Of a stretch of 27,127 bases of DNA, positions 2,958 through 27,127 are shown one piece after another. Positions within the stretch are counted from its first letter, which is position 1, and the number at the start of each line of letters is the position of its first letter. A model generated the notes under the pieces. That model ran no database searches, was not told the DNA's origin, and saw nothing but the letters and a program-made list of their open reading frames with translations. The stretch comes from a virus. Position numbers and translations under genes: made by a program. Location: positions 1-27,127 of IMG/VR virus record IMGVR_UViG_3300031245_000008; one strand, 5' to 3'.

Positions 2958-2958
2958 T

Positions 2959-4828: not shown

Positions 4829-4829
4829 A

Positions 4830-8879: not shown

Positions 8880-8888
8880 GAGGTTGAT

Positions 8889-9815: not shown

Positions 9816-9816
9816 A

Positions 9817-10269: not shown

Positions 10270-10283
10270 CGAAAGGGAAAAAG

Positions 10284-11028: not shown

Positions 11029-11029
11029 A

Positions 11030-12038: not shown

Positions 12039-12316
12039 AACTCATTCAAAAATTTGACCCTACTGATGGAAAAGAATACTTAGGCAAAGTCAAATTAGAT
12101 GAGTTAGAAAGCGGTATTGCCGATGCCCGTTATATTCACGAACAAATCGTTCCAGCATCGACTTGGGCTATTCAGCATAATCTTGGGAAATATCCATCAG
12201 TTACGATTGTGGATAGTGCAGGAAATGTTCAAATTGGAGATATAGAATATATTGATACAAACAATTTGACTGTATCTTTCACAGGTAGTTTCGGTGGAAG
12301 AGCATATTTAAATTGA
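12035..12316 (+). CDS. Small tail-fibre-type protein with HNLG beta domain
   Basis: This 93-residue protein is almost entirely one domain often found at the C-terminus of phage fibres and appendages: STWAIQHNLGKYPSVTIVDS, then GDIEYIDTNNLTVSFTGSF and a closing GRAYLN. The N-terminal 30 residues (KFDPTDGKEYLGKVKLDELE) may bind a partner. The ATG at 12035 overlaps the preceding stop as ATGA behind a GGGGAAGGG stretch. An upstream in-frame ATG at 11969 lies inside the previous gene and is unlikely. It probably forms part of a fibre or adaptor with the large fibre gene eight bases downstream. Confidence 0.7.
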   Translation: MKLIQKFDPTDGKEYLGKVKLDELESGIADARYIHEQIVPASTWAIQHNLGKYPSVTIVDSAGNVQIGDIEYIDTNNLTVSFTGSFGGRAYLN

Positions 12317-12323
12317 GGGAAGT

Positions 12324-13856
12324 ATGAAGTTTTTAACAAACATTGATTTAATAAAAAACGAGCTTCAGAATGCTCGTATTCAAAACCTTGCCACAGACCC
12401 TTCAAGTCCTGTTGCTGGACAAATTTATTTCAATACAACAACGAACCGAATCAGATATTACGATGGAGCACAATGGGTGGATATTAATGATACCGAGGTT
12501 ATACAAGATATAATTGGAGCTGCTCTTGTCTCTACCAATACAATTAATTTACAATATGATGATGCAAACAATCAAATCAAAGCAGATGCAAGATTAAAGA
12601 GTTCGCCTGGAACGAATGAAGGTTTAATTTCTTACGACGCAAATGGAATGTTCGTGGTTTTAGGGACAGGAGCCAATCAAGCTGCACCGGGAAATCATAC
12701 TCATTTATCCAGCAGTATAACAGATTTTACTGAGGCGGCTCAGGATGCCATTGGGGCTGCACTAACCAACACGAACTCCATTTCTCACACATATAACGAT
12801 GCGGCCAATACAATATCCTCAGCATTAAGGCGAAAGACAAGCGGTTTAACGTCTGGTAGTCAAGGCTCATTAGGAGAAGATACCAATGGTGTTTATGTAG
12901 ATCTCGGGCTTAACGATGGGACGAAAGCAATGCCCGGGAATACCCCATTAAACCAAATTCCCGCACCAACAGCCGATGTTTCACTAAATTCCAAAAAGAT
13001 AACCAATTTGGCAGACCCAGTTTCGCCGCAAGACGCTGCAACCAAAAATTATGTTGACAACGCAGTTCAGGGAATAAGTGCAAAAGCAAGTGTAAGGGCA
13101 GCAACAACGGCCAATATCACTTTGTCGGGAACACAAACAATTGATGGTGTGGCCCTTGCTGTTGGAGACAGAGTTTTAGTCAAAGACCAAACCACAACAA
13201 GCCAGAACGGAATATACGTTGTTGCAAGCGGGGCTTGGTCAAGAGCAACAGATGCTGATACTTGGGCAGAATTGGTTTCGGCTTATGTTTGGGTTCAAAG
13301 TGGAACGCAAAATGGCGATACAGGTTGGTTGTGTACCGTTGACCCCGGAGGCACGCTTGGGACAACTGCTGTTACTTGGGTGCAGTTCTCTGGGGCTGGG
13401 CAGATAAACGCTGGGAACGGTCTATCAAAGACAGGAAATACCCTCGATGTGAATGTAGACAATTTTACCATTGAAATAAATTCAGACATACTTAGGGTCA
13501 AAGATGGCGGAATAACCGGGGCAAAAATTGCGAATGGTGCTGTTGACTTAACTACAAAAGTTACAGGCACTTTGCCTATTGCCAACGGTGGGACTGGTGC
13601 TACAACCGCCGCGCAAGCAAGAGCGAATTTGGGATGTATTGGGAAATATGCAACAAGTGTAGGAAACGGAGCTGCAACACAGATTACTGTCACACACAAT
13701 CTTGGGACAACCGATGTACAGGTTTCGGTCTGGCGAGTTGCCTCTCCCAAAGATATGGTTATGCCAGATATACAAATTGTGGATGCAAATTCAATCAAAT
13801 TAATTTTTGCAACAGCACCAGCGAGTGGTGAGTACAGATGTGTAGTTGTTGGATAA
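12324..13856 (+). CDS. Tail fibre protein
   Basis: This 510-residue protein is built of typical fibre pieces. An N-terminal AGQIYFNTTTNRIRYYDGAQ motif lies near 31-50. Two related segments follow (IGAALVSTNTINLQYDDANN and IGAALTNTNSISHTYNDAAN). Then come SKKITNLADPVSPQDAATKN and a widely shared block with SVRAATTANITLSGTQTIDG and VGDRVLVKDQTTTSQNGIYV. Near the end are LPIANGGTGATTAAQARANL and a terminal HNLG beta domain. These blocks occur in fibres of many unrelated phages and mediate trimerisation and receptor contact. A GAGGGAAG site precedes the ATG. The gene lies before the tail tube gene, away from the tail tip genes. The receptor is unknown. Confidence 0.85.
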   Translation: MKFLTNIDLIKNELQNARIQNLATDPSSPVAGQIYFNTTTNRIRYYDGAQWVDINDTEVIQDIIGAALVSTNTINLQYDDANNQIKADARLKSSPGTNEGLISYDANGMFVVLGTGANQAAPGNHTHLSSSITDFTEAAQDAIGAALTNTNSISHTYNDAANTISSALRRKTSGLTSGSQGSLGEDTNGVYVDLGLNDGTKAMPGNTPLNQIPAPTADVSLNSKKITNLADPVSPQDAATKNYVDNAVQGISAKASVRAATTANITLSGTQTIDGVALAVGDRVLVKDQTTTSQNGIYVVASGAWSRATDADTWAELVSAYVWVQSGTQNGDTGWLCTVDPGGTLGTTAVTWVQFSGAGQINAGNGLSKTGNTLDVNVDNFTIEINSDILRVKDGGITGAKIANGAVDLTTKVTGTLPIANGGTGATTAAQARANLGCIGKYATSVGNGAATQITVTHNLGTTDVQVSVWRVASPKDMVMPDIQIVDANSIKLIFATAPASGEYRCVVVG

Positions 13857-13864
13857 GAAAGATT

Positions 13865-14818
13865 ATGGATTTTTTACATAGCAAAGCAAAGCAATTTTCA
13901 ATAGAAACGGTAAGTAGCCTACCGACCGGATTGGGAACTGCCCAAAGGGGCAGATTGGTAATTTACAAAGGTGTTTTGTTCTGGTGGGACGGCAATGTTT
14001 GGATATCAGTTGGAAGGAAACCCATCTACACCCTAACGGAACTTGTTGGGGCTGGGGCTACTTACGAAACAGACGCAGATTATTCATTATGTGATAATAA
14101 TATCGATGCAGTTTATTGGCGAGATTATGTTCGAACCATTGGCAGAAATGATAAAAAAGGTACTATTGGCACCATAAATTGGATTGGCAGGTTCAATCAA
14201 CCTGCCGGGGATACTGCTCTTTGGAATGGAATGAGAGTAATTGTAACAGCTAAAGATGAGACTTGGTTCAACATTGGCAACGATGTAAGCGTTCCAACCT
14301 TCCTCAATGAAATAGCATTCCCAATTTTGACTGGCACAGCCAATACGATTTGGAGAGTTAAGAAAGCAGAATTCATTTTCGATGCCAATGTTGGAAAATG
14401 GCAGTTATATTCATACGAAAGAGCAACCTTTTCCGTACGAATCTGGTTTTATCCAGTTGAAACCACCCAGACTATTATAAATAAAACATTTAGCCTTCCT
14501 TACCCTGGCGCTTATCAGTTCGATGTTTTTGCTAAAGTTAGAGAATTAGATGCTCAATTCAACGAAGTTCCAGTTCTTACATCAAGAATGCTTGAAATTT
14601 TTTCTTCTCTCGATAATCCGATAACTATTTATTATGGAGACCAAGGTGGAATTTTTGAAAGAAGTATGAACGGAGGGGGAATAATTCGTTCCGCAGGCAG
14701 AGATGATACGATTTACCTTAGATTTACATTGCCAAATGGGACGTATAAGCATATCGATTATGGATATATTCATCTACAATTATTAGAAAAGGAGGTTGAC
14801 AATGAATTCTATATTTAA
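13865..14818 (+). CDS. Putative fibre-associated or appendage protein, unknown family
   Basis: This 317-residue beta-rich protein follows the fibre gene by eight bases. Its N-terminus contains RGRLVIYKGVLFWWDGNVW, a variant of the IYF..YYDGAQW motif at the start of the preceding fibre, which suggests a similar attachment or folding unit. The middle (WIGRFNQPAGDTALWNGMRV, VTAKDETWFNIGND) resembles a lectin-like or capping domain in composition but matches nothing I can name. The ATG at 13865 is chosen because the earlier start at 13838 overlaps the fibre gene; the ribosome binding site is weak (AAGAAAG). A role in the fibre or adsorption apparatus is inferred from position and the shared motif. 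Confidence 0.6.
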   Translation: MDFLHSKAKQFSIETVSSLPTGLGTAQRGRLVIYKGVLFWWDGNVWISVGRKPIYTLTELVGAGATYETDADYSLCDNNIDAVYWRDYVRTIGRNDKKGTIGTINWIGRFNQPAGDTALWNGMRVIVTAKDETWFNIGNDVSVPTFLNEIAFPILTGTANTIWRVKKAEFIFDANVGKWQLYSYERATFSVRIWFYPVETTQTIINKTFSLPYPGAYQFDVFAKVRELDAQFNEVPVLTSRMLEIFSSLDNPITIYYGDQGGIFERSMNGGGIIRSAGRDDTIYLRFTLPNGTYKHIDYGYIHLQLLEKEVDNEFYI

Positions 14819-14852
14819 TCCATCATATGTTTCACCAATAAAGGAGGCGTAA
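14802..14852 (+). CDS. Very short ORF (16 codons) with perfect ribosome binding site
   Basis: AAAGGAGG at about 14788-14795 precedes an ATG at 14802 that opens a 16-codon frame, MNSIFNPSYVSPIKEA. The frame ends at TAA 14850-14852, one base before the tail tube ATG. The frame overlaps the end of the preceding gene in another phase. Its last codons themselves form the ribosome binding site of the tail tube gene. It may be a leader peptide that couples translation to the tube gene, or a true micro-protein. Confidence 0.4.
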   Translation: MNSIFNPSYVSPIKEA

Positions 14853-14853
14853 A

Positions 14854-15486
14854 ATGATATCAGGCGGCCAATCACTAACAGATTTCTACAGAGTTGCAAA
14901 GAACACAGCCGGCGACGACTATGTGATTCTTAAAGGGCTTACGGGAACAACCGCTGCAACCGCTCGCGCCGATAAGGCATTTTCTCTCGTCGAATTAGTG
15001 GACACAAAACCAGCGTTCCAGGAAGATGGAACAGTCAAGATAACGTTCGAAAACTATCAAGACGACCCTGAATTATACGATTTCCTCGACGCAGTCAATC
15101 CGCCAGCAGTAGCAGGTGGAAGCAAACTTCCCGATGTTCTGTTGGAAAACGGAGTGAAAAAATTAGGTTCAGGTGGTGCCAATGATTCATTGGTATTAGC
15201 AATCTCTTACGGAGCATACTCTGCCGATGGAACGAAAATCAAAGTCCTTGTAGCGCTAGGTAATGTTAGCAGAACGTCTGGATCTTGGAGCCAGAAAGCC
15301 GATGATTACTCAAAACCTTCGTTTGAATTCACAGGAACGAAAGCCGAGTTCGATTTAGAAATTGACGCTGCATTGTTCCACTCTGGGACTGGCGGGCTCG
15401 TGGATGCAACCGATGTGGCAGCAAAAATCCCCAAGATACCAAAGAATGCAGGGTTCGTAAGGAAATTTGTTGCAAAGAAAACATAA
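14854..15486 (+). CDS. Putative major tail tube protein
   Basis: This 210-residue protein is the best candidate for the repeating tube subunit. It stands immediately upstream of the frameshifted chaperone pair and the tape measure, the conserved place for the tube gene in long-tailed phages. It has no cysteine, is rich in Gly, Ala, Asp and Lys, and alternates beta segments (KAFSLVELVDTKPAF, TVKITFENY, LVLAISYGAYS, TKIKVLVALGNVS) as expected of the tube fold. A strong AAAGGAGG site precedes the ATG. No sheath gene is seen nearby, which argues for a non-contractile tail. I do not recognise the exact family. Confidence 0.7.
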   Translation: MISGGQSLTDFYRVAKNTAGDDYVILKGLTGTTAATARADKAFSLVELVDTKPAFQEDGTVKITFENYQDDPELYDFLDAVNPPAVAGGSKLPDVLLENGVKKLGSGGANDSLVLAISYGAYSADGTKIKVLVALGNVSRTSGSWSQKADDYSKPSFEFTGTKAEFDLEIDAALFHSGTGGLVDATDVAAKIPKIPKNAGFVRKFVAKKT

Positions 15487-15499
15487 TTAGGAGAGGAAG

Positions 15500-16027
15500 A
15501 TGGGTGAGACCTTTGAATTAGAATATTACGATGGGGATGGTGTAAAAACCATCCCTATCCGTCTTAAATTCTTGACTCCTGCCCTTCGAGTCAAGATAAT
15601 TCAGCACGATACAGCTTCGCAATTGGCGTTCAAAAAATATGAACAGGAAATTTTAAGTCAAGAAGCATTAAAAAAAGAAAATGAGATTCAAGAGAAAATT
15701 AATGTGAAAATCAACGAGATTTTGAAAACCAACCCTGCCATCTCCCCCGATGAAATCGAGCTAGAAAAAACAAAATTCTTATTGGAATTAATAAAAGACA
15801 CATCAGAAGAAGAGATAAAGGAACGGGAAGCTGTGCTTATTAAGAACTGGGCGTATAATGATGAATGGAACATCAAACTTTTCAAACTAATTGTGGACAT
15901 CTCAGGCTTGTCAGAAGAAGAGAAGAAACTAATACAGAGCAAGGAGGATTCGCACTTTTGGAAAAATGTAAATATTGGAAAGGTGGTGGAAATCAACCGC
16001 TACTTTCGCCGAACTAATTCGCTCTGA
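15500..16027 (+). CDS. Tail assembly chaperone, upstream frame (gpG-like)
   Basis: This 175-residue acidic, helix-rich protein lies between the tube and tape measure genes, where tail assembly chaperones reside. It starts with a beta segment (FELEYYDGDGVKTIPIRLKF), then a long charged helical middle and a conserved-looking end (WNIKLFKLIVDISGLSEEEK and FRRTNSL). It overlaps the next frame by about 53 bases with no good start for the second frame, implying ribosomal frameshifting to produce a long gpGT-like fusion. An AGGAGAGG-type site precedes the ATG. The role is to bind the tape measure during tail assembly; it is not part of the virion in well-studied phages. Confidence 0.72.
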   Translation: MGETFELEYYDGDGVKTIPIRLKFLTPALRVKIIQHDTASQLAFKKYEQEILSQEALKKENEIQEKINVKINEILKTNPAISPDEIELEKTKFLLELIKDTSEEEIKEREAVLIKNWAYNDEWNIKLFKLIVDISGLSEEEKKLIQSKEDSHFWKNVNIGKVVEINRYFRRTNSL

Positions 16028-16322
16028 GAACGAGAAAATTAAGTGGTTGTTAGATGTTCCAGCGTTCAATGTTGAAAAGAATTATTCTGACGAAGAACGC
16101 AAGTTCTATGAGAAACGAAAGAATGCACGATGGAATTTATGGAATTTGATACCAAACATTGCAGAAGGCTATGAGTTTGATGAGGAGATTGAATATCAAT
16201 ATAAAACTTTATGTTATATCGCTGCGAAAGGTATTTATTCTGAAATGAAAAGGTTATACGAGACAGCATCGTTGGTTGAAGTTTTTGAAATATTGATGAT
16301 ACAAAAAGCTTTGGATTGGTAA
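15975..16322 (+). CDS. Tail assembly chaperone, downstream frame (gpT-like, probably made by frameshift)
   Basis: This frame, 115 codons when counted from a TTG at 15975, has no ribosome binding site and begins inside the first chaperone gene. The frame is closed by TAA at 15969-15971, so ribosomes must enter between about 15972 and 16025. It would extend the first chaperone with AELIRSENEKIKWLLDVPAF and a helical, tryptophan-rich domain (NARWNLWNLIPNIAEGYEFD). Its stop overlaps the tape measure ATG. The arrangement fits the gpG/gpGT pair of long-tailed phages, but the needed shift is +1 (or -2), not the common -1. Confidence 0.65.
   Translation: MERWWKSTATFAELIRSENEKIKWLLDVPAFNVEKNYSDEERKFYEKRKNARWNLWNLIPNIAEGYEFDEEIEYQYKTLCYIAAKGIYSEMKRLYETASLVEVFEILMIQKALDW
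16004..16007 (+). promoter_or_regulatory. Candidate +1 slippery site (TTT C) in the chaperone overlap
   Basis: In the upstream frame the codons read TAC TTT CGC CGA. A phenylalanine tRNA on TTT can re-pair with TTC one base forward, after which reading continues GCC GAA CTA into the downstream frame. It is the best re-pairing site I found in the overlap window. A -2 shift elsewhere in the window would give the same frame. Confidence 0.35.
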
Positions 16323-19300
16323 TGGAAGGTTTCCAAGTATCATTTACACTTAATCCTGTTTTTAATGTTCAGGCATTCAATTCAATCCTTAACGGGATTA
16401 GAGATTCTCTTGGAGAACTTGGTAAAAACCTTAACTTAAAACCAATAGATGAAACCAAATTCAATTCAGCATTAAACTCGGTCAAAACCCAAACCGAAGG
16501 TGTTGCACAATCTTTTCAAAAGGTAAACGAAAACGCAGAAAATGCAAAAGAAACAACTAAACAGCTGGGTAATGAAGGTACCAAGGCTGCTAATTCGTTA
16601 AAACAATCTTTTCTCAACGCCTTTGAAAGCCTGAACAGCCGAACCAAAGATTTGCTCAGCACAATGCTGGGGGTGTTTGGCGGAGGCGCCCTTTTGAAAG
16701 GAGTTAGTGGGCTTTTTGGTGGGTTCTCGGATATACTCTCCAAAGGTAAATCCTCTATCGAATCAATAAACAATATGAAGGTTGCTTTTGCCCAAGCAGG
16801 TAAAAGCGGAGAGGAGCTAAACAGAACCATAAAAGAAACGATGGCCTATGCGAGCGAACTAGCTAATAGATTCGCAATGCCTACCAGTGAGATAAGAAGG
16901 TTTAGTCAAGTTGCGGCTGCCATTGGAGGGGCTACGGGTAAGGCAAATCAGGATTTGACAACTTTGGCAATTGCGGTCGAAAAAACTACGAACGGACTTG
17001 TCTCTGGTGAAATGGCTATTCGTTTGTTTTCTAAGGGCGTAACTGACCCTGAGGCTCAGTTTGCACTTGGGAGATTAACAAAACAATTCCCAGCATTGGC
17101 TAGTGCATTGAAAGATGTAAAATCCCCAGCCGAGGCAACTCAAAAAGCCTTGCAATTTTTTGGTCCTGCTCTGAAACAAATCGAAGAAAATGCTGATGGA
17201 CCCATTGGTGCGTCAATAAGATTAGAAAACGCATTGTCCCGATTAAAATCAAGTCTGGGGAAAGTGATTGTCGAAGCAATTGCACCTTTTATTACTTCTT
17301 TTACAAACAACATTCTTCCTGTTCTCCAATCTGGCGCGTCAGCTTTTGGAAGTTTAATTAATGCTATTAAACCTTTGCAACCTGTTCTTATGGGGTTAGG
17401 CGTAGCAGTTGCTGGCGTGGTGACTGGATTACTTGTTTTGCAAGGAATCAAAGTCTTCACAGGGCTGGCAACAAGTGCCACTCAATTTGGATTAAGTCTT
17501 TTGCAAAAAGTCATACCAGCATTAGTGGCAGAAAACGCTGCTACCGGAGCTTTGGTGTTCCAAAAAGAAGCACTAACAGTGGCCACCCTCAAAGAATCTG
17601 CCGTGACAATGGCAAATACTGCGGCCAAAATGGCTTTAACTGGTGCTACAACTATTCTTACAGCAGCTCAAACCGCACTTAATGCAGCTTTCATTGCTTC
17701 GCCTATTGGCTGGGTCGTTGTTGGCATTGGTGCGTTGGTTGGGGGGATGATATTGCTGTATAAGAATGTTCAAGCAGTGCGGAATTTCTTTGATAGTCTT
17801 TGGGCAGTTATCGTCAAAGGGGCTACTTATGCTTGGGAAATAATCAAAAAGCTGTTTGAGATAATATTTGAGATAGGCAAAACCATTTTTAACATTCTTA
17901 TCACCCCATTTAGAATGTGGTGGACAACAATTAGTGCCATTGGTAAAGCAATCGGAGAGTTAATAGGTGGTGCAACTTCATTAGGAGAACGTGGTACCTT
18001 CTTATCAAAAATAATGAACGGATTGTCCGAAGCCTTTACTACTGTTATGAATGTATTGAACGGGGTTCTCTCGGTTGTGAAATCGGTAACATCGGCAATT
18101 GATTCCTTTATCAGTGGTTTCGGTTCGGCAATTGGGAAACTTCTATCGGGAGATTTTAAAGGCTTTATTGACGGACTTGGGAAAGCGGGAGAAGATGCTG
18201 GAAAGGCGTTTACATCGAAAATGACCGAGGTGTTAGAGTCTGCTAATTTCGAGTTGGCTGGCAAAAAAATTAAGGAAAGTATAGAATCACAAACACAAAT
18301 CCAAATTCAAATTGATAAGCAAGCTACTTTACAAAATCTAATTCAAAGTTATGAAGGAATCCAAAATGAAATTGCTTCTTTATCCCAAAAATCTGCTACC
18401 GTAGGCCTTTCCGACGATGAGAAAAAACGACTCCAAGAATTGCAAACAAAATCAATCGAAACAGCAAAAGCAATAACCGATATAGTCCCGCAGGCAAAAG
18501 GGGCAATGAAAACCATCGTTGACGAGACTGGACGATTGCAGACTGTCTGGGATGTAAACATATCCAAAGCAAAGGAATTTGCAAAAACCTCATCTCTATT
18601 TGCAGATTCGGCTACTGCTGCCAAAGTATTTACTAATGCTCTTGGTAGTCAAGCCAATGTGATTGAAAACCAAAAGCAAAGATTGAATGAATTAAAAAAT
18701 CAAATAAATCAGACAACTGACCCAGAAGAAGTTCAAAAACTTATTGCAGAGTATAATAAACTATCAGATACAATAAACCAAAACAAGGATGCATTGGTTC
18801 AAAACTTCCTTGCCGGTGCAATGGCTGGCAATCTTACTGAAGAGGCATTGCAAAAGGTTGCAAAAGCACTGGGAATATCTACCGAAGAAGCCAAAAAGAT
18901 GGCGATTGCAAAGGAACTTGAAGAAGCCAATAAGCAGGGCAAAGTAACTCCTGAATTAATCCAAAAAATAGCAGGGAAGTATAAGGAGTCAGGTTCAACC
19001 GTTGAGCAGATTTATGAAGCTCAAAAGAAAGTTACAAAGGAATTAGAAGCCTCCAAAATCGAAGCTCTTGGTTTGGCGGATGCAGTCTCGCTTGCTCAAC
19101 AGAAACAGAAAGAGGGACGAGATATAATCATAAAAGCTATTGCTGATTTAAAAGCTGGTAGAATAAATCAAGAAGAGTATAATAAAAGAATAGCCGAAGG
19201 CACTCAAAAGCAAAAAGAGGGTGCTCAACTACAACAGGAATTAAACGACGCTGCGAAAGAGGCAACAAGACAAAAACTAATACAAAATATTGTTGCTGAC

Positions 19301-21472
19301 GAAACGGCCGAAAAGGAAAAGAAGACCACGGGCGAAGTTAAAAACCAAATAGATAAATATTTAGAGCTTTATGAGTTAAAGAAAAAAGCCAATGAGAACG
19401 AGATAACCGCTTTTGAAAAACAAATTGAAAGACAAGCTCTGCTTGCAGGTCGAACAGAAAAGACTGCAGAAGAAGAACTGTTGATTATTAATGAAAAGCA
19501 AAAGAGAAATCAAGAAGCTTATAACGAACTTCTTTCTTTGGTGGAAAAATACAAAATAAAGGTATCCGAAACTGGACAAATTTCTTTCGCAGGGAAAATT
19601 AAATCTGACCAAGCACAGAAAATATATGAAGAATTTACAAGGCTCAAAAACGAGATTGAATCGAATGAAAACAGCAAAATAAGAATTGAACTTAAAATCA
19701 AACAAGACAAAGCCAAGTTACAGGAGGAAATAAAGAAAGCTCGAGAAGAGATTGCTAAGATCATGGCGGACATGAAATTATCTGATATTGAAGTAAAAGT
19801 AAAATTAGGTCTTGTAACCGAATCCGAACTCACCAAGGCCAAAATTGCCAAAATGAGAGAGGAATTACAAGCATTGCAACTGCAAGCCGCCTCTTTTAAT
19901 TTTGCTACCGCAACTCCTGAAACCTTGGTTAAATACAATGAAACCATAGCAGCCATTCAAAAACTCAATCAAAATATTCTACTCGAAACTCAAAATTTAA
20001 ATAAGCAATTAGAGAACGAACGGATAAATTCAATCATTGATGAAGCCGAGAAGGAAAGAGAAGTTGCCATTGCCAAAGCAAAGGAAATTTATGAACAGGA
20101 TTTGTTATATGCCAAAGATAATAACAAAAAGAAATTGCAAGCTTATTTGAAATACCTCGATGCGATTGAAGCTGCAAACCAAAGTTACCTAGCCAAGCAA
20201 AAAACTTTTACCAAAGAATTCCAAGATGCTTTGTTCTTGTCTCTTCAAGGATTTTCTCAAGCGCTGTTTGAAACAAGTCTGGACCCGCTAACTGAGAGAT
20301 TAGAAGAACTTCGCTCTCAATTGCAAGCTATAAAAAATACAAAAACAGGCGATGAACTAAATAAATTCAAAGAAGAGGAGAAGCAATTAATTAAATCTCT
20401 CCATAATAGAGAAATTTCAACCACGGATTATTACAAGAAGGTCAACGAGCTGGAACGCAAACGGCACGAACTACTAATGAAAAATGGACAAGAAGAAGCT
20501 GAGTTTTCTTTAAGATTAAAATATGGACTTACCCAAGGCTTCACGCAAATGGCAAAGCAATGGGGGCTGGCCGCAGACCAAACACTGGATAAAATAAAAA
20601 GTAACTACTCAAAAATTAGTATCCTTGAAGACAAACTTCAGAAAAATCTCTTTAAAGATGCCAAAGAAAGAGAAGAAGCCGAAAAAGGATTGGTCGAACT
20701 ACGGAAACAAAATCTTGACGACCTGCAAAAATATGCGGAAGAGGCAACGGCGATGTCAATTAGCTCTTTCGTTGCTATGCTCGCCTCCGGGGCAAGCTTA
20801 ATGGAAGCATTCAAAAAAGGCTTGTTGAAAAATGTTCTTGATATCGCCGAAAAATCTATAATGGCAAATATACCCGAGATATATGCTAAATATTTTGCCA
20901 CTTTGGGTCCTTTTGCAGGCCCTGCCGCTGCGGGAGTTGCCATTGGATTGATTATGTCTTTGTTGGAAGCCGCAAAGTCGGCTATTAGTGCTTATAAAGG
21001 TGCTGTTGATATACAGGGTCCTGGAACAGAAACATCTGATAGCATCATTGCAAGGGTTTCTAAGGGTGAATCAATTGTCACGGCGAAAGCAACCAAGACA
21101 GGCGAGAATAAAGAACTTCTTCAATGGCTTAATCAAACAGGCAGACCGGCAATTGAGTTCTATATTACAAAGAAACCTGATGTATTGAAATCGTTAACAA
21201 CCAAATTAATCACACAGGAAAAGGAAATCACAGAGAAGCAGAAAGAATTAATCTTCCAAAAATTGGTGTATGATAATTTGGAAGCAAGCAGAAAAATCCA
21301 GCAACTTGGTGAAAATCTAAACAAAGGTATTGAGGAACTGAAAAATGCAATCAGGAATTCAGGCTATGTATCTAAAACTTACAATCAAGTCAGCGTTGAT
21401 GTTGATTTCAATACACGAGAGATAATCAAAAAAGTGAACATTGAAAAGAATTGGAGGATTAAAAGATTATAA
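16322..21472 (+). CDS. Tape measure protein
   Basis: This 1716-residue protein is by far the longest in the window, follows the chaperone pair and has the expected make-up. There is a long charged coiled-coil region through the second half (for example KIRIELKIKQDKAKLQEEIK). Hydrophobic blocks lie near 110-135, 345-375 and 460-560 (ASPIGWVVVGIGALVGGMIL). Near the end are a glycine/alanine-rich segment (GPFAGPAAAGVAIGLIMSLL) and a SDSIIARVSKGESIV motif seen in many tape measures. It sets tail length and is ejected ahead of DNA. At roughly 1.5 angstrom per residue it implies a tail near 250 nm. The ATG at 16322 forms a TAATG junction; an upstream TTG at 16316 is less likely. No separate lytic domain was recognised. 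Confidence 0.93.
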   Translation: MEGFQVSFTLNPVFNVQAFNSILNGIRDSLGELGKNLNLKPIDETKFNSALNSVKTQTEGVAQSFQKVNENAENAKETTKQLGNEGTKAANSLKQSFLNAFESLNSRTKDLLSTMLGVFGGGALLKGVSGLFGGFSDILSKGKSSIESINNMKVAFAQAGKSGEELNRTIKETMAYASELANRFAMPTSEIRRFSQVAAAIGGATGKANQDLTTLAIAVEKTTNGLVSGEMAIRLFSKGVTDPEAQFALGRLTKQFPALASALKDVKSPAEATQKALQFFGPALKQIEENADGPIGASIRLENALSRLKSSLGKVIVEAIAPFITSFTNNILPVLQSGASAFGSLINAIKPLQPVLMGLGVAVAGVVTGLLVLQGIKVFTGLATSATQFGLSLLQKVIPALVAENAATGALVFQKEALTVATLKESAVTMANTAAKMALTGATTILTAAQTALNAAFIASPIGWVVVGIGALVGGMILLYKNVQAVRNFFDSLWAVIVKGATYAWEIIKKLFEIIFEIGKTIFNILITPFRMWWTTISAIGKAIGELIGGATSLGERGTFLSKIMNGLSEAFTTVMNVLNGVLSVVKSVTSAIDSFISGFGSAIGKLLSGDFKGFIDGLGKAGEDAGKAFTSKMTEVLESANFELAGKKIKESIESQTQIQIQIDKQATLQNLIQSYEGIQNEIASLSQKSATVGLSDDEKKRLQELQTKSIETAKAITDIVPQAKGAMKTIVDETGRLQTVWDVNISKAKEFAKTSSLFADSATAAKVFTNALGSQANVIENQKQRLNELKNQINQTTDPEEVQKLIAEYNKLSDTINQNKDALVQNFLAGAMAGNLTEEALQKVAKALGISTEEAKKMAIAKELEEANKQGKVTPELIQKIAGKYKESGSTVEQIYEAQKKVTKELEASKIEALGLADAVSLAQQKQKEGRDIIIKAIADLKAGRINQEEYNKRIAEGTQKQKEGAQLQQELNDAAKEATRQKLIQNIVADETAEKEKKTTGEVKNQIDKYLELYELKKKANENEITAFEKQIERQALLAGRTEKTAEEELLIINEKQKRNQEAYNELLSLVEKYKIKVSETGQISFAGKIKSDQAQKIYEEFTRLKNEIESNENSKIRIELKIKQDKAKLQEEIKKAREEIAKIMADMKLSDIEVKVKLGLVTESELTKAKIAKMREELQALQLQAASFNFATATPETLVKYNETIAAIQKLNQNILLETQNLNKQLENERINSIIDEAEKEREVAIAKAKEIYEQDLLYAKDNNKKKLQAYLKYLDAIEAANQSYLAKQKTFTKEFQDALFLSLQGFSQALFETSLDPLTERLEELRSQLQAIKNTKTGDELNKFKEEEKQLIKSLHNREISTTDYYKKVNELERKRHELLMKNGQEEAEFSLRLKYGLTQGFTQMAKQWGLAADQTLDKIKSNYSKISILEDKLQKNLFKDAKEREEAEKGLVELRKQNLDDLQKYAEEATAMSISSFVAMLASGASLMEAFKKGLLKNVLDIAEKSIMANIPEIYAKYFATLGPFAGPAAAGVAIGLIMSLLEAAKSAISAYKGAVDIQGPGTETSDSIIARVSKGESIVTAKATKTGENKELLQWLNQTGRPAIEFYITKKPDVLKSLTTKLITQEKEITEKQKELIFQKLVYDNLEASRKIQQLGENLNKGIEELKNAIRNSGYVSKTYNQVSVDVDFNTREIIKKVNIEKNWRIKRL

Positions 21473-21475
21473 ACG

Positions 21476-21940
21476 ATGGACGGCTGGTTAATTGCCCTAT
21501 TTGGAACGGATAATTACTATGAAATAGACCAAAATAGCGAGGTTTCGCTCTCTACTTTGGGAACAACAGACCCAATGACCGATGCTAACTGGCTTAAAAT
21601 AGGAATATCAGGAATGTCACCAGGAAGAGAAAATCTTAATGATGGTGAAGAAAGGGTTGGAGGCATCATTGTTCATTCACCAGCCCAAAAACAAATATTT
21701 GAAATTCATCTTTTACCTCTTGTCTTTCCTGATGATATGGATAAATATGAAGCCCTTTGTAATTTGCTTTTGAAAAAATACATTTATCTTTTTAAAGGCA
21801 CTTATTCCTTTGATAATTGGAAGATACATCCTGATGGTAAGGCAATTAGAGTGGCAGTGAATATAGAAACTGAACATAATTACGAAAATGGCACCAAAGA
21901 AATCACATTGCAAGCAAGGAAAGAAAGACCAAAACTATGA
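21476..21940 (+). CDS. Putative distal tail protein (Dit-like)
   Basis: This 154-residue protein lies directly after the tape measure and before the hub protein, the usual place of the distal tail protein that caps the tube and anchors the hub. It is beta-rich, with segments such as RVGGIIVHSPAQKQIFEIHL and KAIRVAVNIETEHNYENGTK, and it has no membrane segment. Its stop overlaps the next start as ATGA. The call is positional; sequence identity to any named Dit family was not recognised. Confidence 0.55.
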   Translation: MDGWLIALFGTDNYYEIDQNSEVSLSTLGTTDPMTDANWLKIGISGMSPGRENLNDGEERVGGIIVHSPAQKQIFEIHLLPLVFPDDMDKYEALCNLLLKKYIYLFKGTYSFDNWKIHPDGKAIRVAVNIETEHNYENGTKEITLQARKERPKL

Positions 21941-23757
21941 GCAATGTAATCTATGTTTATCAATGGCAAGGGATAAGAACCAAATGGAATTATCAATTAG
22001 AGATAATACCATCAGATGATTCTGAATTAACCTCACCAACAATCATCCAACTTCCCGAAGGATTTATTAAAAACTTAGAATTCAATTTTGCTTACGATAA
22101 ATATCCCATAGGTTTTCCCGAAGCGCCTACCCTTTCGTTGACAATTGATTTTAAGAGAATCACCAATGCAGATACTCAATACAATGAACTTAAAAGAGCA
22201 ATTTTTAATCCAATCACCACAACGACCCTTGATGTCGGGGATCCATTCCCCTTCCCAATCAATGTGAAAGTTAAATTAGGAACTATTGTTAATCTAAAAA
22301 TACAATTCCCGGGAACAAATGATTTAATAACAATTTTCCGCGGGATTTATAGAGCTGACAGTAAAGTTAAATATAACATTTTAACAACCGAATGCTCTTT
22401 CGATGCCATAGCAGCGGAAAAAGTAATATTAGAATCTTTTGATTTCAAAACTATCAAACTTATTAGCGAGTTTAAGGATTATTTTACAAACGATAAGTAC
22501 ATTAAAACTGAAGACGTTATCGAACTACTGATTAAAGATGGTTCTTCGTATAAAATGGTCTCACAATGGAACTATCGACATTGGTTTTTTTTACGACCTT
22601 TCTCTTTCCTTTTAGAACAAATAAACAATGTTGCAGCGAAAATTGCTAAAAAAGTTCTGCGTTCTCAATCTGCCACAATTGGAATTCCTCAGTTACCTAA
22701 TATCACTTTTTACAAACAACACTATTCAGGCGATGGGTCACTAGGAAACCAACCAGTATTCATTTATTATATAGAGAGAATTGGACGTAAAATCAATTAT
22801 AATCCCGAATCTTATGAATTCATTGGGGGTTTATTAGATCTCTATGATGAGAGAAGCTTGATTAATATTTATAAAAACAGTGTCTGGGATTTTTTGCGTG
22901 ATTATTGTGAATGGCAACTCTCAAAAGGTTTTATAACTCAAAATTTCGTTTTCTTTTCTTATATGCTTGGGGATGAACAGAATTACATTGAAATAAAAAA
23001 AGACTCAATAATAAACATAGAAATTGAATTATTTAGTAGGATTCCTAAAACAATTACTGCTTCAAACTTTGAATACTATTCAGACGATAAGTTCTCTGAT
23101 ATTGAAAAATTTGAATTAACAATTGAAGGAACATATAATGAAGAAGAAATCACTATACCAATGGTTTTTAATAATATACCTGCTTGTGTAGATTACGAAA
23201 TATTCAAACCCTCCAATGGAATTCAAGCAGTAAGTTTCTTCCCTCATTATCACAATTTTTACTATTCCGAAACCCTCAGTCTTTATCCGGGCGGACCGGA
23301 AAAAGAACGATTTATTAGAATTCACGAATATTGCAATTTCCCAATAAAATCAAATCTTATGTCTTCAGCTCTTCCGGGTTGTGAATTTCAACCCTTTAAT
23401 TTTAATCAACAGGATTTTGAAAACGGGATAAATTATATCATTGCTGCCTCACAAGTTGAAACAGGAATGCCTTTTTGGATAACTAAAATATTAAATACAA
23501 TATTCACAAATCCAAATCAAACCTATATTAGCGATTTAACCGTACCCATTGACCACGTTACAAGTTTTTCACCCGGAAATCTTTGGTATTTCAACTCCAA
23601 AATTCCGTGGTTAATACCTTGGACCAATATAAAGTTGAACCTAAATGATCTTAATAATTTTATTACAATTCCTTTCCAATATTGGTCAGTTATAAGCAGT
23701 AAGGTTGATTTTAAAGATGAAACTGTTACTTTTGAACTTTTGTCAATAAATGTTTGA
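21937..23757 (+). CDS. Putative tail hub / tail-associated protein
   Basis: This 606-residue protein has the size and place of the central tail hub (Tal-like or gp27-like) that closes the tube at the host-facing end. The first 170 residues look like a tandem beta-domain hub: KNLEFNFAYDKYPIGFPEAP, LSLTIDFKRIT, IFRGIYRADSKVKYNILTTE. The rest is aromatic-rich (YYSETLSLYPGGPEK, FNFNQQDFENGINYI) and could contact the cell surface. No lysozyme or peptidase motif was found. It overlaps the preceding gene by four bases. The assignment is from position, size and beta-rich character. Confidence 0.6.
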   Translation: MSNVIYVYQWQGIRTKWNYQLEIIPSDDSELTSPTIIQLPEGFIKNLEFNFAYDKYPIGFPEAPTLSLTIDFKRITNADTQYNELKRAIFNPITTTTLDVGDPFPFPINVKVKLGTIVNLKIQFPGTNDLITIFRGIYRADSKVKYNILTTECSFDAIAAEKVILESFDFKTIKLISEFKDYFTNDKYIKTEDVIELLIKDGSSYKMVSQWNYRHWFFLRPFSFLLEQINNVAAKIAKKVLRSQSATIGIPQLPNITFYKQHYSGDGSLGNQPVFIYYIERIGRKINYNPESYEFIGGLLDLYDERSLINIYKNSVWDFLRDYCEWQLSKGFITQNFVFFSYMLGDEQNYIEIKKDSIINIEIELFSRIPKTITASNFEYYSDDKFSDIEKFELTIEGTYNEEEITIPMVFNNIPACVDYEIFKPSNGIQAVSFFPHYHNFYYSETLSLYPGGPEKERFIRIHEYCNFPIKSNLMSSALPGCEFQPFNFNQQDFENGINYIIAASQVETGMPFWITKILNTIFTNPNQTYISDLTVPIDHVTSFSPGNLWYFNSKIPWLIPWTNIKLNLNDLNNFITIPFQYWSVISSKVDFKDETVTFELLSINV

Positions 23758-23763
23758 CGAAAA

Positions 23764-24228
23764 ATGCCTACAAAAGAATCCATTGCTGCAAACAAAATAA
23801 CAGAAAGAATGCTAGTGCCCCATCTCCGGTGGCGACAAGCAGGCGGAAGAGCTGTTTTTGCCAGTGTTAAAGGCGTCGAAGATGTGATTCAGGGAATATG
23901 CGGAGAAACCATAGAACAGGGCGATGCCGTCTTCCTGGGTGACGATAATAAGATTTATAAAGCCGATGCTCTCAATCAAAAACCCGCTTTTGGATTTGCC
24001 CTGATTGGGGGCATTGCTGACCAAGAAATTTCAATAAGAGTTCGAGGCAAAATAAATATTGAGCTCGACCCCAATATTCCAATAGGCAGTATCATCTTTC
24101 TGCGCTCACAGGGGCAGGTTGGACAAATTGAGAGGCTAAACTCAGGTGATTTGATTCAATATGTAGGTCTTAAATTAGACTCAAACGAATTATATATTAT
24201 AATCGAAAATTTTTATGAAATTGAGTAA
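23764..24228 (+). CDS. Tail-tip beta-barrel protein, distantly like the DUF2190 decoration protein
   Basis: This 154-residue protein ends the rightward operon. Its C-terminal two thirds (GETIEQGDAVFLGDDNKIYK, KPAFGFALIGGIADQEISIR, SIIFLRSQGQVGQIERL) show the same order of motifs as the DUF2190-like protein at 9028-9390. Both have an acidic E-x-G-D/A turn, a D-N/G-K turn, a G-x-AL strand and a closing I-x-VR/K strand. This small barrel is reused in phage fibres and decoration proteins. The first 25 residues (TKESIAANKITERMLVP) may form an attachment helix. A ribosome binding site is not evident, so it may rely on coupling from the hub gene six bases upstream. Confidence 0.6.
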   Translation: MPTKESIAANKITERMLVPHLRWRQAGGRAVFASVKGVEDVIQGICGETIEQGDAVFLGDDNKIYKADALNQKPAFGFALIGGIADQEISIRVRGKINIELDPNIPIGSIIFLRSQGQVGQIERLNSGDLIQYVGLKLDSNELYIIIENFYEIE

Positions 24229-24265
24229 GAATTTTTTGGGCAAAAAGACAAAATTTTTCAAACTA

Positions 24266-24288
24266 TTGCTTACATTTTGCATAATTTC
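24266..24288 (+). repeat. 23-bp direct repeat, copy 1 (candidate att or integrase arm site)
   Basis: This copy contains GCTTACATTTTGCATA followed by ATTTC. It matches the second copy at 24429-24451 over 23 bases with one A/G difference. It lies in the gap between the tail operon and the integrase gene, both of which point into the gap. Confidence 0.6.
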
Positions 24289-24428
24289 CAAAAGTAACAA
24301 CGTAAGTCTTTGAAAATAAAGCAACAAATTAAGTCCCCCAAGGAGCACAACAATACTTTACACTTCTTGATTTACAAATACTTACAATGTCATTTCAATT
24401 CAAATTTTTGTTTTTTGGGGTTCTTATT

Positions 24429-24451
24429 TTGCTTACATTTTGCATAGTTTC
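24429..24451 (+). repeat. 23-bp direct repeat, copy 2 (candidate att or integrase arm site)
   Basis: This second copy, GCTTACATTTTGCATA plus GTTTC, ends four bases before the integrase stop codon. It is 163 bases from copy 1 with a single substitution. Confidence 0.6.
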
Positions 24452-24454
24452 ATT

Positions 24455-25513
24455 TTAAATTTTTGTTATGTTCCCTATTCGACTTTCTAATAATTCAATG
24501 TCAGGTACAGAAAGATAATGTTGCCGTTCAATTGCACTTGTATGTCCTGCCAAGATGTTCCTAACCTCGGTATCAATACCCAGACGACGCCAGTTGTTGA
24601 TAGCGCCTTTTCGTATGACGTGGAAAGTTACACCATCAAATTTTAAATCAGGATACTTATTATTCAAAATTCTGTTTGCTCGTCGCAATTTCTTTGCTAA
24701 AGTTGGTTGATACTTAACAGGAACAGGTTTATAAAAACCCATTCGCTTTAATTCATCAAGAATTTCCGCAACCCTCGGGAATGGTGACAAAGGGAAAATT
24801 CTATCCCTCGACCCTTTACCTTTAACAATAAAATAACGAGGGGTAACATCCTCCCACTGCAAATCAATTAACTCCTGGATGCGAAGACCAGTTAAAAAAT
24901 CAAATTCAATAATTAAACCGATATGAACTTGCCCATCCTCTTCGAAAAACTTTTTATATGCCTCAATATGTTCAGCGGTTACAATTTTAATTTCCTTTTT
25001 CTTTACTACCGGCAACATTGAACTAACGACTGGATTTTTATCCATCCATTCCAATTCAATCGCATATTTAAAAATTCCTTTCAAATCGGAGAGAAGTTTT
25101 TTTAAAGTACTTGGTGATAAATGAAGTTTCTCAATGGCTTTTAATATGTTCATTCTAATTAGTTGAACATCATCAAGCAGAAGGTCCTCATAGAGGAAAT
25201 ACCTATAAATCCGTTTGTATCTCAAAATTGAAGAGCGGCTTAGATGCATTATTTTATCTTTATGAAATTGTTTAATTAAATCTGAAATATACTTGTTCGA
25301 AGGAGCTTTTACTTTAATAACCTCTTCTCTAATTCTTTGGTCCAAGATCTCCATTGCCAGCTTTTTATTCTTTGGGGTCCATACCAACCCAGTAGCTTTG
25401 CGAACGGAATTGACACTGGTGTAAACCAAGCCATTCCTATACCGATAACAATAAGCCTTCTTATAGGTTGGATGAACCCATCTGTCTTCCCGGGGTTTTG
25501 AGTATCGTGGCAC
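24455..25513 (-). CDS. Tyrosine-type site-specific integrase
   Basis: This 352-residue recombinase should integrate and excise the element. The N-terminal part is basic. A SAM-like core-binding domain spans about 72-160 (SDLIKQFHKDKIM, SPSTLKKLLSDLKGIFKYAI). The catalytic domain carries R211 in TGLRIQEL, a lysine in VKGKGSRDRIF (231-233), H298 and R301 in FHVIRKGA, H324 in LAGHTSAI, and the nucleophile Y333 in RQHYLSVP. The full R-K-H-R-H-Y set is therefore intact and the enzyme is probably active. The start is GTG at 25511-25513, with AGAG just upstream. It lies beside the repeat-bearing gap, as expected for an integrase next to its attachment site. Confidence 0.93.
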   Translation of the reverse strand: MPRYSKPREDRWVHPTYKKAYCYRYRNGLVYTSVNSVRKATGLVWTPKNKKLAMEILDQRIREEVIKVKAPSNKYISDLIKQFHKDKIMHLSRSSILRYKRIYRYFLYEDLLLDDVQLIRMNILKAIEKLHLSPSTLKKLLSDLKGIFKYAIELEWMDKNPVVSSMLPVVKKKEIKIVTAEHIEAYKKFFEEDGQVHIGLIIEFDFLTGLRIQELIDLQWEDVTPRYFIVKGKGSRDRIFPLSPFPRVAEILDELKRMGFYKPVPVKYQPTLAKKLRRANRILNNKYPDLKFDGVTFHVIRKGAINNWRRLGIDTEVRNILAGHTSAIERQHYLSVPDIELLESRIGNITKI

Positions 25514-25527
25514 CTCTAATAAGCTAA

Positions 25528-25538
25528 TTGTCCGACAA
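25528..25538. promoter_or_regulatory. Palindromic operator-like site upstream of the integrase
   Basis: TTGTCCGACAA has perfect 5-base arms around a single central base. It lies 15 bases upstream of the integrase start, just downstream of a TATAAT on the minus strand (25549-25554). A matching -35 is poor. The position would let a repressor block integrase transcription. The site is seen directly; the binding protein is unknown. Confidence 0.35.
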
Positions 25539-25574
25539 ATTGATTTTTATTATATAAATTTTCCCCTTATCTTC

Positions 25575-26144
25575 TTAAGGTTTTAAATTAGACATTGGAT
25601 TTGTGTAATAATATACTTTTTCAATATTCTGAATCGAAAAAACAAAGTAATATTCTAACAGATCTTTCCCTTTTAAAATAGGGAAGTAAACTCCAAAGGT
25701 TTTATTATAATAAATCCGTTTGTCCTCTCCTGGAAACAAAGTAAGAACAATCCAATCTTTTAAATATTCACCAAAATATATATTTTCAGCAGGAAGAATG
25801 AAGTCTTTGTATTTTGCAAATGCAGGTATTACGGTAGTGGCTTGTGGTTCAAAGCGATTTACAATTTTAACCGAGGAATGAACAACCCTTTTAGCATATC
25901 CGAACGGATCAATGTATGCTAAATCATCCCAGTTGATTTTCAACGGCGTTCCTGTTTTGTTTTTAATGGTGAAATTGATAAGCTTGTCATCCAACGCATA
26001 AGTAATTTCAATGTTATCATCCGAATATGTAAGATCTTTGGAAACATCAGGGCGTTCCATCCTAAAAGTATACTTATAATAATAAGGATAAGAACAACCA
26101 AACAAAGACAAAATAATAAACGAGAAAAGTAAAACTCTTTTCAT
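25575..26144 (-). CDS. Lipoprotein of unknown function, possible lysogenic-conversion gene
   Basis: This 189-residue protein starts with a lipoprotein signal: basic MKR, a hydrophobic stretch, then lipobox LFGC with the lipidated cysteine at 17 followed by serine. In a Gram-negative cell that favours the outer membrane. The mature part is tyrosine-rich and beta-rich (YYYKYTFRMERPD, NIEITYALDDKLINFTIKNK, YYFVFSIQNIEKVYYYTNP) and may be an immunoglobulin-like sandwich. A GGGAGG site precedes the ATG. It lies among lysogeny genes between the nuclease and integrase, suggesting expression in the prophage state and a change in the host surface. No family was recognised. Confidence 0.7.
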   Translation of the reverse strand: MKRVLLFSFIILSLFGCSYPYYYKYTFRMERPDVSKDLTYSDDNIEITYALDDKLINFTIKNKTGTPLKINWDDLAYIDPFGYAKRVVHSSVKIVNRFEPQATTVIPAFAKYKDFILPAENIYFGEYLKDWIVLTLFPGEDKRIYYNKTFGVYFPILKGKDLLEYYFVFSIQNIEKVYYYTNPMSNLKP

Positions 26145-26174
26145 TTGGACCTCCCATTAAATTATTAGAATAAC

Positions 26175-26639
26175 TTACTTTTTATAATATCTTTTTCTAT
26201 TTATAATCTTAGCACATAATGTTTCCAACGAATCAGCCAAATAATATCCATCGACCCAAACCTTCCGCAACAGCCTGCCATAAACATCAAAATTGTTCTG
26301 GGTATAATCCTTGAACAGTAAAACCTTCTTGTTTTCAATCTTATCTCTTACAAATCTCAAAGCCTGCCAACCTAAATCATATGCTTTATCAATGTCAATC
26401 CCTGCCCCATCAGCTTGCTTTTGCAATCGGTTATTCCTATGAATTTCAAAACAATCAATTCCTACCAACCGTATCTTATATCGCTGCGAATCATAATAAA
26501 ACTCATAAGTATCTCCATCAATAACCCGGGTTATAGTAACCCAACAAGAGTCGTCGTAAACTGGATTTTTTGTCTGAGCTTGCGCTAACCCTAATAGGGT
26601 TATGAAAAACAAAGGCATTAGAAATATTTTTGCTTTCAT
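26175..26639 (-). CDS. Secreted staphylococcal-nuclease-like enzyme (thermonuclease family)
   Basis: This 154-residue protein has a signal peptide (residues 1-21, ending AQA before Q22) and an SNase domain. DGDT is at 41-44, and the catalytic set R57, D62 and E65 in RLVGIDCFE keeps the spacing of the Staphylococcus aureus R35-D40-E43 triad. R122 in YGRLLRKVW corresponds to R87. It is therefore probably an active calcium-dependent nuclease working outside the cytoplasm. I chose the ATG at 26639, one base after the stop of the UmuD-like gene, with AAAGGTGG upstream. A start at 26747 would run through that gene and lacks a signal peptide. It is probably co-transcribed with the UmuD-like gene. 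Confidence 0.85.
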   Translation of the reverse strand: MKAKIFLMPLFFITLLGLAQAQTKNPVYDDSCWVTITRVIDGDTYEFYYDSQRYKIRLVGIDCFEIHRNNRLQKQADGAGIDIDKAYDLGWQALRFVRDKIENKKVLLFKDYTQNNFDVYGRLLRKVWVDGYYLADSLETLCAKIINRKRYYKK

Positions 26640-26640
26640 A

Positions 26641-27120
26641 TCAATTAACCACCTTTGTTTCCATATACTTATCATCAAACACCCCCAACTCCCGATAGTA
26701 ATTAAATGAATGGTCAGTAAGATTACGACACATTCTGACAGCCACACCGATTATACGGAAATTATCGAATGAAGTTATATTTATAATTGGATAGTTTTTG
26801 TTTGCAGACAATAGAGATACTTGCCCATCAAGAACTTGCAAACGTTTGATAAGATAGTTGCCATTGAGATAACAAATCACTATACATCCGTTAATGGGTT
26901 TCCGTTTAAAGTCGCCTATAATCACATCTCCCGGGGCAAGAAGAGGCACCATTGAGTCTCCGCTTACTTCTACAATGAATGGTGACTCAATGTCTGCAAT
27001 AAGTTTTTCAGGAAGGTCAACATACTCCATTCCATCAGCAAAGGGCGTTCCCTCGCCGCATTGGAAATTAGAGATAAATTTGGGAACTCTTATCCAAACC
27101 TTAGGAACTGTGATAACCAT
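26641..27120 (-). CDS. UmuD-like self-cleaving S24 peptidase
   Basis: This 159-residue protein is close in layout to UmuD, the SOS-induced partner of DNA polymerase V. The Cys-Gly cleavage site is at 21-22 in NFQCGEGTPFADG, the nucleophile is S56 in VSGDSMVPLLAPGD, and the general base lysine is K92 in NYLIKRLQ. Spacing matches UmuD (Cys24-Gly25, Ser60, Lys97) within one or two residues. There is no N-terminal DNA-binding domain, so it is not a CI/LexA repressor by itself. An in-frame stop directly before the ATG confirms the start. The C-terminus is about 20 residues longer than in UmuD. No umuC follows; the nuclease gene does. Confidence 0.85.
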   Translation of the reverse strand: MVITVPKVWIRVPKFISNFQCGEGTPFADGMEYVDLPEKLIADIESPFIVEVSGDSMVPLLAPGDVIIGDFKRKPINGCIVICYLNGNYLIKRLQVLDGQVSLLSANKNYPIINITSFDNFRIIGVAVRMCRNLTDHSFNYYRELGVFDDKYMETKVVN

Positions 27121-27127
27121 TTAAACA

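What the first reader, a model, noticed from the sequence alone, without database searches (positions are those of the whole stretch)
25575..26639. Lipoprotein plus secreted nuclease: possible envelope-based phage exclusion or conversion module
Two exported proteins with intact signals lie among the lysogeny genes, away from virion genes. An active periplasmic nuclease could cut DNA of infecting phages during entry while the lipoprotein alters the surface. This would be a new type of superinfection exclusion, but it may equally serve nutrient use or biofilm release.
Basis: inference. Interest (0 to 1): 0.55.

Follow-up and report, generated by a model that had tools for sequence, protein, structure and literature searches.

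The report
Phage-borne exported nuclease, unpaired lipoprotein
A bacterial virus that can settle in its host carries an intact-looking gene for an exported DNA-cutting enzyme next to an unrelated lipoprotein gene; both look like ordinary passenger genes, and they do not form a conserved two-gene module.

Summary
Between an S24/UmuD-like gene and the integrase of a temperate phage lie two intact exported proteins: a staphylococcal-nuclease-type (SNase) enzyme with a cleavable signal peptide and all active-site residues, and a lipobox lipoprotein with a beta-sandwich fold. The module idea fails. The SNase gene alone is shared at 93-94% DNA identity with three contigs of a distant phage lineage (structural proteins 25-47% identical), at another genome position and without the lipoprotein. 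Related phages carry other exported SNases in other slots, some inside the early helicase operon. The lipoprotein family turns up without the SNase: beside the S24 repressor of a Bacteroides phage, in large viral contigs and in Ignavibacteria-class genomes; 0 of 294 genomes had both. I read them as two independent passenger (moron) genes lodged in the immunity-integration operon. The nuclease most likely degrades DNA outside the lysogen's cytoplasm, as mobile-element DNases YokF, Dns and IdeA do, limiting transformation and releasing nutrients. Superinfection exclusion is possible but untested. Kind: new member of a known kind. More unusual, and noticed in passing: these phages carry type IV-B CRISPR effector genes, one lineage with a 36-nt periodic array.

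The parts
26641..27120 (-). S24 peptidase domain protein, UmuD-like, no HTH; upstream gene, probably of the same operon
   Evidence: PF00717 74.7 bits; NCBIfam UmuD-type model 67.7 bits, below its cut-off of 110; its stop lies 1 base before the nuclease ATG
26175..26639 (-). exported SNase-type nuclease, 154 aa
   Evidence: PF00565 over cut-off, SNase fold, catalytic residues invariant in 24 of 24
26577..26639 (-). signal peptide of the nuclease (aa 1-21, cleavage AQA|QT read by eye)
   Evidence: sequence and hydropathy; the first 20 aligned codons differ from the L002 gene at 22 of 60 nt, the other 133 codons at 19 of 399
26177..26612 (.). tract shared at 93-94% DNA identity with three contigs of another phage lineage
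   Evidence: only match of window 24300-27127, found in 3 of 7 records searched; similarity ends at the stop codon
25575..26144 (-). lipoprotein, 189 aa, beta-sandwich, family without a Pfam, PHROG or NCBIfam match
   Evidence: no family match; model pLDDT 88.9; lipobox Cys invariant in 20 of 20
26097..26144 (-). lipoprotein signal (aa 1-16), lipobox LFG|C
   Evidence: sequence, read by eye
24455..25513 (-). tyrosine integrase, downstream of the lipoprotein
   Evidence: PF00589 36.7 bits, phrog_1 integrase 1.6e-41; 59% identical to the integrase of the G229 prophage

Best explanation
Two independent passenger (moron, lysogenic-conversion) genes have been inserted between the S24 gene and the integrase of a temperate phage, most likely of Ignavibacteria-class bacteria, and are co-transcribed with the immunity-integration genes of the prophage. 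The first makes a secreted, soluble SNase-type nuclease; the second an unrelated lipoprotein with an Ig-like beta-sandwich. In the lysogen the nuclease is exported and degrades double-stranded DNA in the periplasm or outside. Its most likely benefit is the one shown for other mobile-element DNases (YokF, Dns, IdeA): less naked DNA is taken up, so the prophage is less often replaced by transformation, while nucleotides and phosphate are released for the cell. Shown: gene order, export signals, intact active site and fold, selection on the mature enzyme, transfer of the nuclease gene alone between phage lineages, lack of pairing. Inferred: operon expression in the lysogen, enzyme activity, the benefit.
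For: SNase family, fold and active site. Purifying selection on the mature part: dN/dS about 0.10 against L002 and 0.09 against L004. The nuclease gene alone is shared at 93-94% DNA identity with records whose other matched proteins are mostly 25-47% identical, so it moves and is kept as a single gene. Relatives lack this insertion: in the G229 and G244 prophages S24 runs straight into integrase, in the L004 phage only a 105-aa ORF lies between. Spacing is tight: 1 base between S24 and nuclease, 30 bases with a Shine-Dalgarno-like GGGAGGT before the lipoprotein, 61 before the integrase. The lipoprotein family sits directly after the S24 repressor of Bacteroides phage BS-TP2 and directly after an integrase in genome G086, i.e. 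in lysogeny slots without an SNase. Precedent: secreted DNases of prophages and ICEs lower transformation by one to three orders of magnitude (PMC4774983, passages; also PMC11472951, passages). An exported thermonuclease homologue of YokF is needed for growth on DNA in Haloferax (PMC3929857, passages). ComEC is present in 5 of 5 genomes of the likely host group.
Against: In three related records (G244 prophage, and L153 and G302, which carry the same gene) an exported SNase overlaps the stop of the early helicase gene by 1 or 4 bases, which suggests expression in lytic growth, when blocking transformation is of no use to the phage. Competence of the host is not shown: ComEC also rings in 10 of 14 control genomes, E. 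coli among them. Host-group genomes often carry their own SNase (53 of 294), so one more may add little. The protein lacks the C-terminal helix of classical SNases (Pfam match covers 61 of 107 positions; alignment), so activity is not certain. No activity, export or expression data.
Confidence: 0.45

Rival explanations
1. Superinfection exclusion: the exported nuclease cuts DNA of other phages or of conjugating and transforming elements while it crosses the periplasm.
For: Exported SNases recur in this phage group in at least four slots and three sequence lineages; one of the slots is an early lytic operon, where excluding a second phage would pay. Cutting of phage DNA at entry by a membrane nuclease is now shown for SNIPE (PMC13190303, passages).
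Against: Tailed phages pass DNA through a protected channel; one review says that T5 fuses the membranes and so keeps its DNA from periplasmic nucleases (PMC10975011, passages). SNIPE cuts on the cytoplasmic side and is steered by binding the tape measure protein; nothing here shows such targeting. No pairing with the lipoprotein. Among 80 helicase-bearing viral loci only 2 carry an exported SNase.
Confidence: 0.15
2. Nutrient or matrix role: the enzyme releases phosphate and nucleotides from extracellular DNA, or thins DNA-rich matrix or lysate, to the gain of the lysogen or of the phage in lytic growth.
For: YokF-type nucleases support growth on DNA (PMC3929857, passages). Fits both the lysogeny and the early lytic placements. 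The host group keeps exported SNases at fixed chromosomal places beside an SMC gene in 4 genomes and beside a DivIVA-like gene in 3 (both gene names are recalled from the sequence, not from a call).
Against: No phosphate gene came up among the window proteins scanned; nothing tells this benefit from transformation control.
Confidence: 0.3
3. The SNase and the lipoprotein form one envelope module acting together.
For: Adjacent, same strand, 30 bases apart, both exported.
Against: No co-occurrence found in either direction; the SNase moved alone.
Confidence: 0.05

Closest known systems
YokF / Nuc-type exported thermonucleases (YokF of Bacillus subtilis, called prophage-encoded in PMC4774983)
   Same: SNase-type domain, exported, on a prophage; homologues act on extracellular DNA
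   Different: 24-29% identity to SNase structures; I did not align it with YokF itself; soluble by its signal peptide rather than a lipoprotein; lacks the C-terminal helix; other phage and phylum
Dns of Campylobacter CJIE1 and IdeA of a Vibrio ICE (transformation-blocking DNases of mobile elements, PMC4774983)
   Same: mobile-element gene for an exported DNase
   Different: I tested no sequence relation to them (that they are another nuclease family is recalled); no transformation data here
SNIPE (PMC13190303)
   Same: nuclease linked to the envelope
   Different: SNIPE is a GIY-YIG nuclease held in the inner membrane and facing the cytoplasm; this one is an SNase with a cleavable signal peptide
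DUF4352-type lipoproteins such as B. subtilis YjhA (for the lipoprotein; family name of YjhA recalled)
   Same: lipobox and Ig-like beta-sandwich; YjhA among the matches (Foldseek E 1.9e-3; Z 6.9 over 108 residues, rmsd 3.9)
   Different: no Pfam match; the match is no better than many unrelated sandwiches

Membership tests
SNase (PF00565) nuclease | profile score over the curated cut-off | tested here: met
   26 bits against 21
SNase (PF00565) nuclease | active-site residues (Asp, Asp, Arg, Asp, Glu, Arg) | tested here: met
   D41, D43, R57, D62, E65, R122 invariant in 24 of 24; their roles are recalled from staphylococcal nuclease
SNase (PF00565) nuclease | SNase (OB-type) fold | tested here: met
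   the 50 Foldseek rows shown are all staphylococcal nuclease, E 1.3e-6 and weaker
SNase (PF00565) nuclease | complete domain with C-terminal helix | tested here: inconclusive
   profile match covers positions 1-61 of 107; the ~155-aa subfamily lacks the last helix
SNase (PF00565) nuclease | nuclease activity | not testable with these tools
   needs a biochemical assay
Mobile-element DNases that block transformation (YokF, Dns, IdeA) | exported nuclease encoded on a mobile element | tested here: met
   signal peptide and phage setting
Mobile-element DNases that block transformation (YokF, Dns, IdeA) | naturally competent host | tested here: inconclusive
   ComEC domain in 5 of 5 likely host-group genomes, but also in 10 of 14 controls
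Mobile-element DNases that block transformation (YokF, Dns, IdeA) | lowers transformation | not testable with these tools
   needs an experiment
   0 lipoprotein hits in 15 loci of SNase-carrying phages, several of them fragments; 0 of 294 genomes with both
SNIPE | GIY-YIG nuclease domain | tested here: not met
   only SNase found by Pfam
DUF4352 lipoproteins | Pfam match | tested here: not met
   no Pfam family at E 0.001
DUF4352 lipoproteins | Ig-like beta-sandwich fold | tested here: inconclusive
   YjhA Z 6.9 among many other sandwiches

The most novel reading that the evidence does not exclude
A mobile class of phage-borne, signal-peptide SNases works as a portable periplasmic DNA barrier: it has been swapped between phage lineages and put both under the lysogeny operon and in early lytic operons, so that infected or lysogenised cells destroy incoming phage, plasmid or transforming DNA before it reaches the cytoplasm.
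Probability: 0.15. Interest if true: 0.65.

Novelty: new member of a known kind. Interest (0 to 1): 0.3.

Why it matters
It adds an environmental phage group (hosts most likely of the class Ignavibacteria) to the phages that carry exported DNases, shows one such gene passing alone between two phage lineages, and shows relatives of it in an early lytic operon. That last point questions whether transformation control can be the whole story for phage DNases. The two-gene exclusion module proposed at first can be set aside.

Tried and rejected
Lipoprotein in viral contigs by single protein: no relative. S24 gene and integrase in viral contigs: no relative. PADLOC gives for the nuclease only a hit to a candidate model 'SNc+LTD' (1e-11); not used as evidence of defence. 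Promoter and terminator scan of 24200-27127: 11 promoter-like sites against 11.6 in shuffles, 2 terminator-like against 1.7; no information. A link between SNase and the type IV-B genes was considered, since the SNase lies beside cysH in the L002/L004 phages; rejected as a rule because it is convergent there, lies elsewhere in the window phage, and in the G244 prophage is present where my csf markers found none. A fold-based function for the lipoprotein was rejected: best rows are beta-sandwich proteins of many unrelated kinds at Z 8.5 and below; viral models give four matches at E under 0.001, one named lysis protein, one DUF4352, TM-scores under 0.5. Papers: 'periplasmic nuclease' + phage + superinfection returned one review, thermonuclease + prophage + superinfection one paper of which I saw only the listing, phage-encoded / secreted nuclease / extracellular DNA / lysogen a list of which I read only the listing; in these three searches I found no report of a periplasmic SNase as an exclusion system. 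In the portal survey two further SNase-like hits were not counted as phage cargo: L121 (G047, some 14 kb from a 21% portal) and L130 (a 450-aa ORF, E 2e-6). In the helicase survey three contigs have SNases without a signal peptide, not counted.

Full report
Setting. The window is a whole virus record of 27,127 bases, classed linear, a fragment of a tailed temperate phage. It holds neck, head, portal, terminase and methyltransferase genes (234-6260), head protease, capsid and tail genes (6451-24228), then on the minus strand integrase, lipoprotein, nuclease and S24 gene. A contig with 100% identical portal, terminase and neck proteins (L016) continues past the left end and adds early genes. The likely host group is the class of an Ignavibacteria MAG (record title): two genomes of that class carry portals 63-64% identical, and one of them, G229, holds a related prophage with 35-82% identity in the proteins that match the window's structural proteins.

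The nuclease. The ORF from ATG 26639 to 26175 scores over Pfam's SNase cut-off. Its AlphaFold model matches staphylococcal nuclease structures in all 50 rows shown. Against 23 relatives its active-site residues never vary. It has a signal peptide with an AQA|QT cleavage site, while many relatives show a lipobox. Like the host-chromosome relatives of about 160 aa it lacks the last helix of classical SNases.

A gene that moves alone. In viral contigs three relatives were found, 88-90% identical. A 2,828-base stretch of the window matched these records only over 26177-26612, at 93-94% (3 of 7 records). The phage behind L004 (53 kb) has portal, terminase and integrase proteins 27-34% identical to the window's. 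There the nuclease sits next to cysH, in the opposite direction, with a ribbon-helix-helix gene upstream. Its own integrase-S24 locus has a 105-aa ORF in place of nuclease and lipoprotein. So the gene passed between phage lineages by itself. The mature part shows dN 0.019 and dS 0.184 against L002, and 0.025 and 0.269 against L004; the first 20 codons differ at 22 of 60 bases, so the signal peptide may have another history.

Other exported SNases in related phages. The G229 prophage has one of another lineage, alone on its strand (L080:11343-11894). The G244 prophage (L083:9998-10456), L153 and G302 have lipobox SNases that overlap the stop codon of the early helicase gene by 1 or 4 bases; L153 and G302 carry the same gene. 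A tree puts phage SNases in three places (10 of 26 inner branches are open). The cargo is uncommon: clear in 2 of 25 portal sites that I chose from the 52 genomes with a portal, none at three further helicase sites, and in 2 of 80 helicase-bearing viral loci, one of them the L004 record. SNases are common in the host group, 53 of 294 genomes; most of those read out have a lipobox or another N-terminal hydrophobic run, and four sit beside an SMC-like gene.

The lipoprotein. No family model matches. Relatives occur in 32 of 294 genomes of the class, in Bacteroides phage BS-TP2 directly after the S24 repressor, in three large viral contigs that hold nearly the same stretch, directly after an integrase in G086, and in three plasmid records. 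The model is a beta-sandwich with no telling structural match. It looks like a lysogeny-slot cargo of its own.

No pair. The lipoprotein profile found nothing in 15 loci (232,224 bases) of SNase-carrying phages and prophages, nothing in 50 portal- and helicase-site loci (819,605 bases) and nothing in 80 viral helicase loci (1,047,008 bases); it did find the window's own gene and the viral relative. Several of these loci are fragments, so absence in one of them is weak. At genome level 0 of 294 had both, against 5.8 expected if independent (shared ancestry makes the computed P of 0.001 too small, and the thresholds were 1e-8 and 1e-3).

Reading. In the G229 and G244 prophages S24 runs straight into the integrase. 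The window phage has two cargo genes lodged in that joint, with spacing that suggests one transcript. I take them as lysogenic-conversion cargo. For the nuclease the closest working precedents are prophage and ICE DNases that cut transformation by one to three orders of magnitude (PMC4774983, passages) and exported thermonucleases that let cells use DNA as food (PMC3929857, passages). The early-operon copies in relatives weigh against transformation control as the only benefit and leave room for a lytic-phase role. Superinfection exclusion would need the enzyme to reach DNA that tailed phages pass through a channel; SNIPE, the system shown to cut at entry, works from the cytoplasmic side (PMC13190303, passages). 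I give it 0.15.

Limits. Signal peptides were judged by eye; no expression or activity data exist; the gene upstream of S24 is off the window; the host is inferred from relatives.

Noticed in passing
L016:5570-8916 (contig of the window's phage species), L015:6110-9490, L017:4111-7455, L080:18105 to L081:2084: Temperate phages of this group carry a type IV-B CRISPR effector set (csf1, cas11, csf2, csf3, cysH). PADLOC type IV models hit the five proteins tested of L015 (not cysH) and L016 at 1e-40 to 1e-74; the others were matched by similarity to these. Virus-borne type IV-B is known from Bathyarchaeia viruses (PMC10848311, passages).
   Followed up: partly
L017:2863-3476 and L015:5115-5511: A 36-nt periodic array lies upstream of the csf genes on their strand: 17 and 11 units with a [TG]CGAG motif, spacing 36 save one of 37; only some units are shared by the two phages. 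The frame is also open as a 12-aa repeat, so CRISPR-like array or coding repeat is undecided. No such periodicity in L016 or the G229 pieces.
   Followed up: partly
window 26641-27120; L081:8685-9104; L100:10771-11193: A short S24-only, UmuD-like gene lies at the integrase in three related phages; in the G244 prophage it overlaps a longer S24-related, repressor-like gene upstream.
   Followed up: partly
L082, L084, L085, L088: Exported chromosomal SNase beside an SMC-like gene in four genomes of the class (G187, G229, G218, G194), a conserved place of unknown meaning (gene name recalled).
   Followed up: no
L091:5987-6829: A two-domain exported SNase in which the first domain has lost its active-site motif and the second keeps it.
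   Followed up: no
L015:10076-10504 and L016:5112-5546: A ribbon-helix-helix gene 94% identical between the two phage lineages, a second recently shared gene.
   Followed up: no
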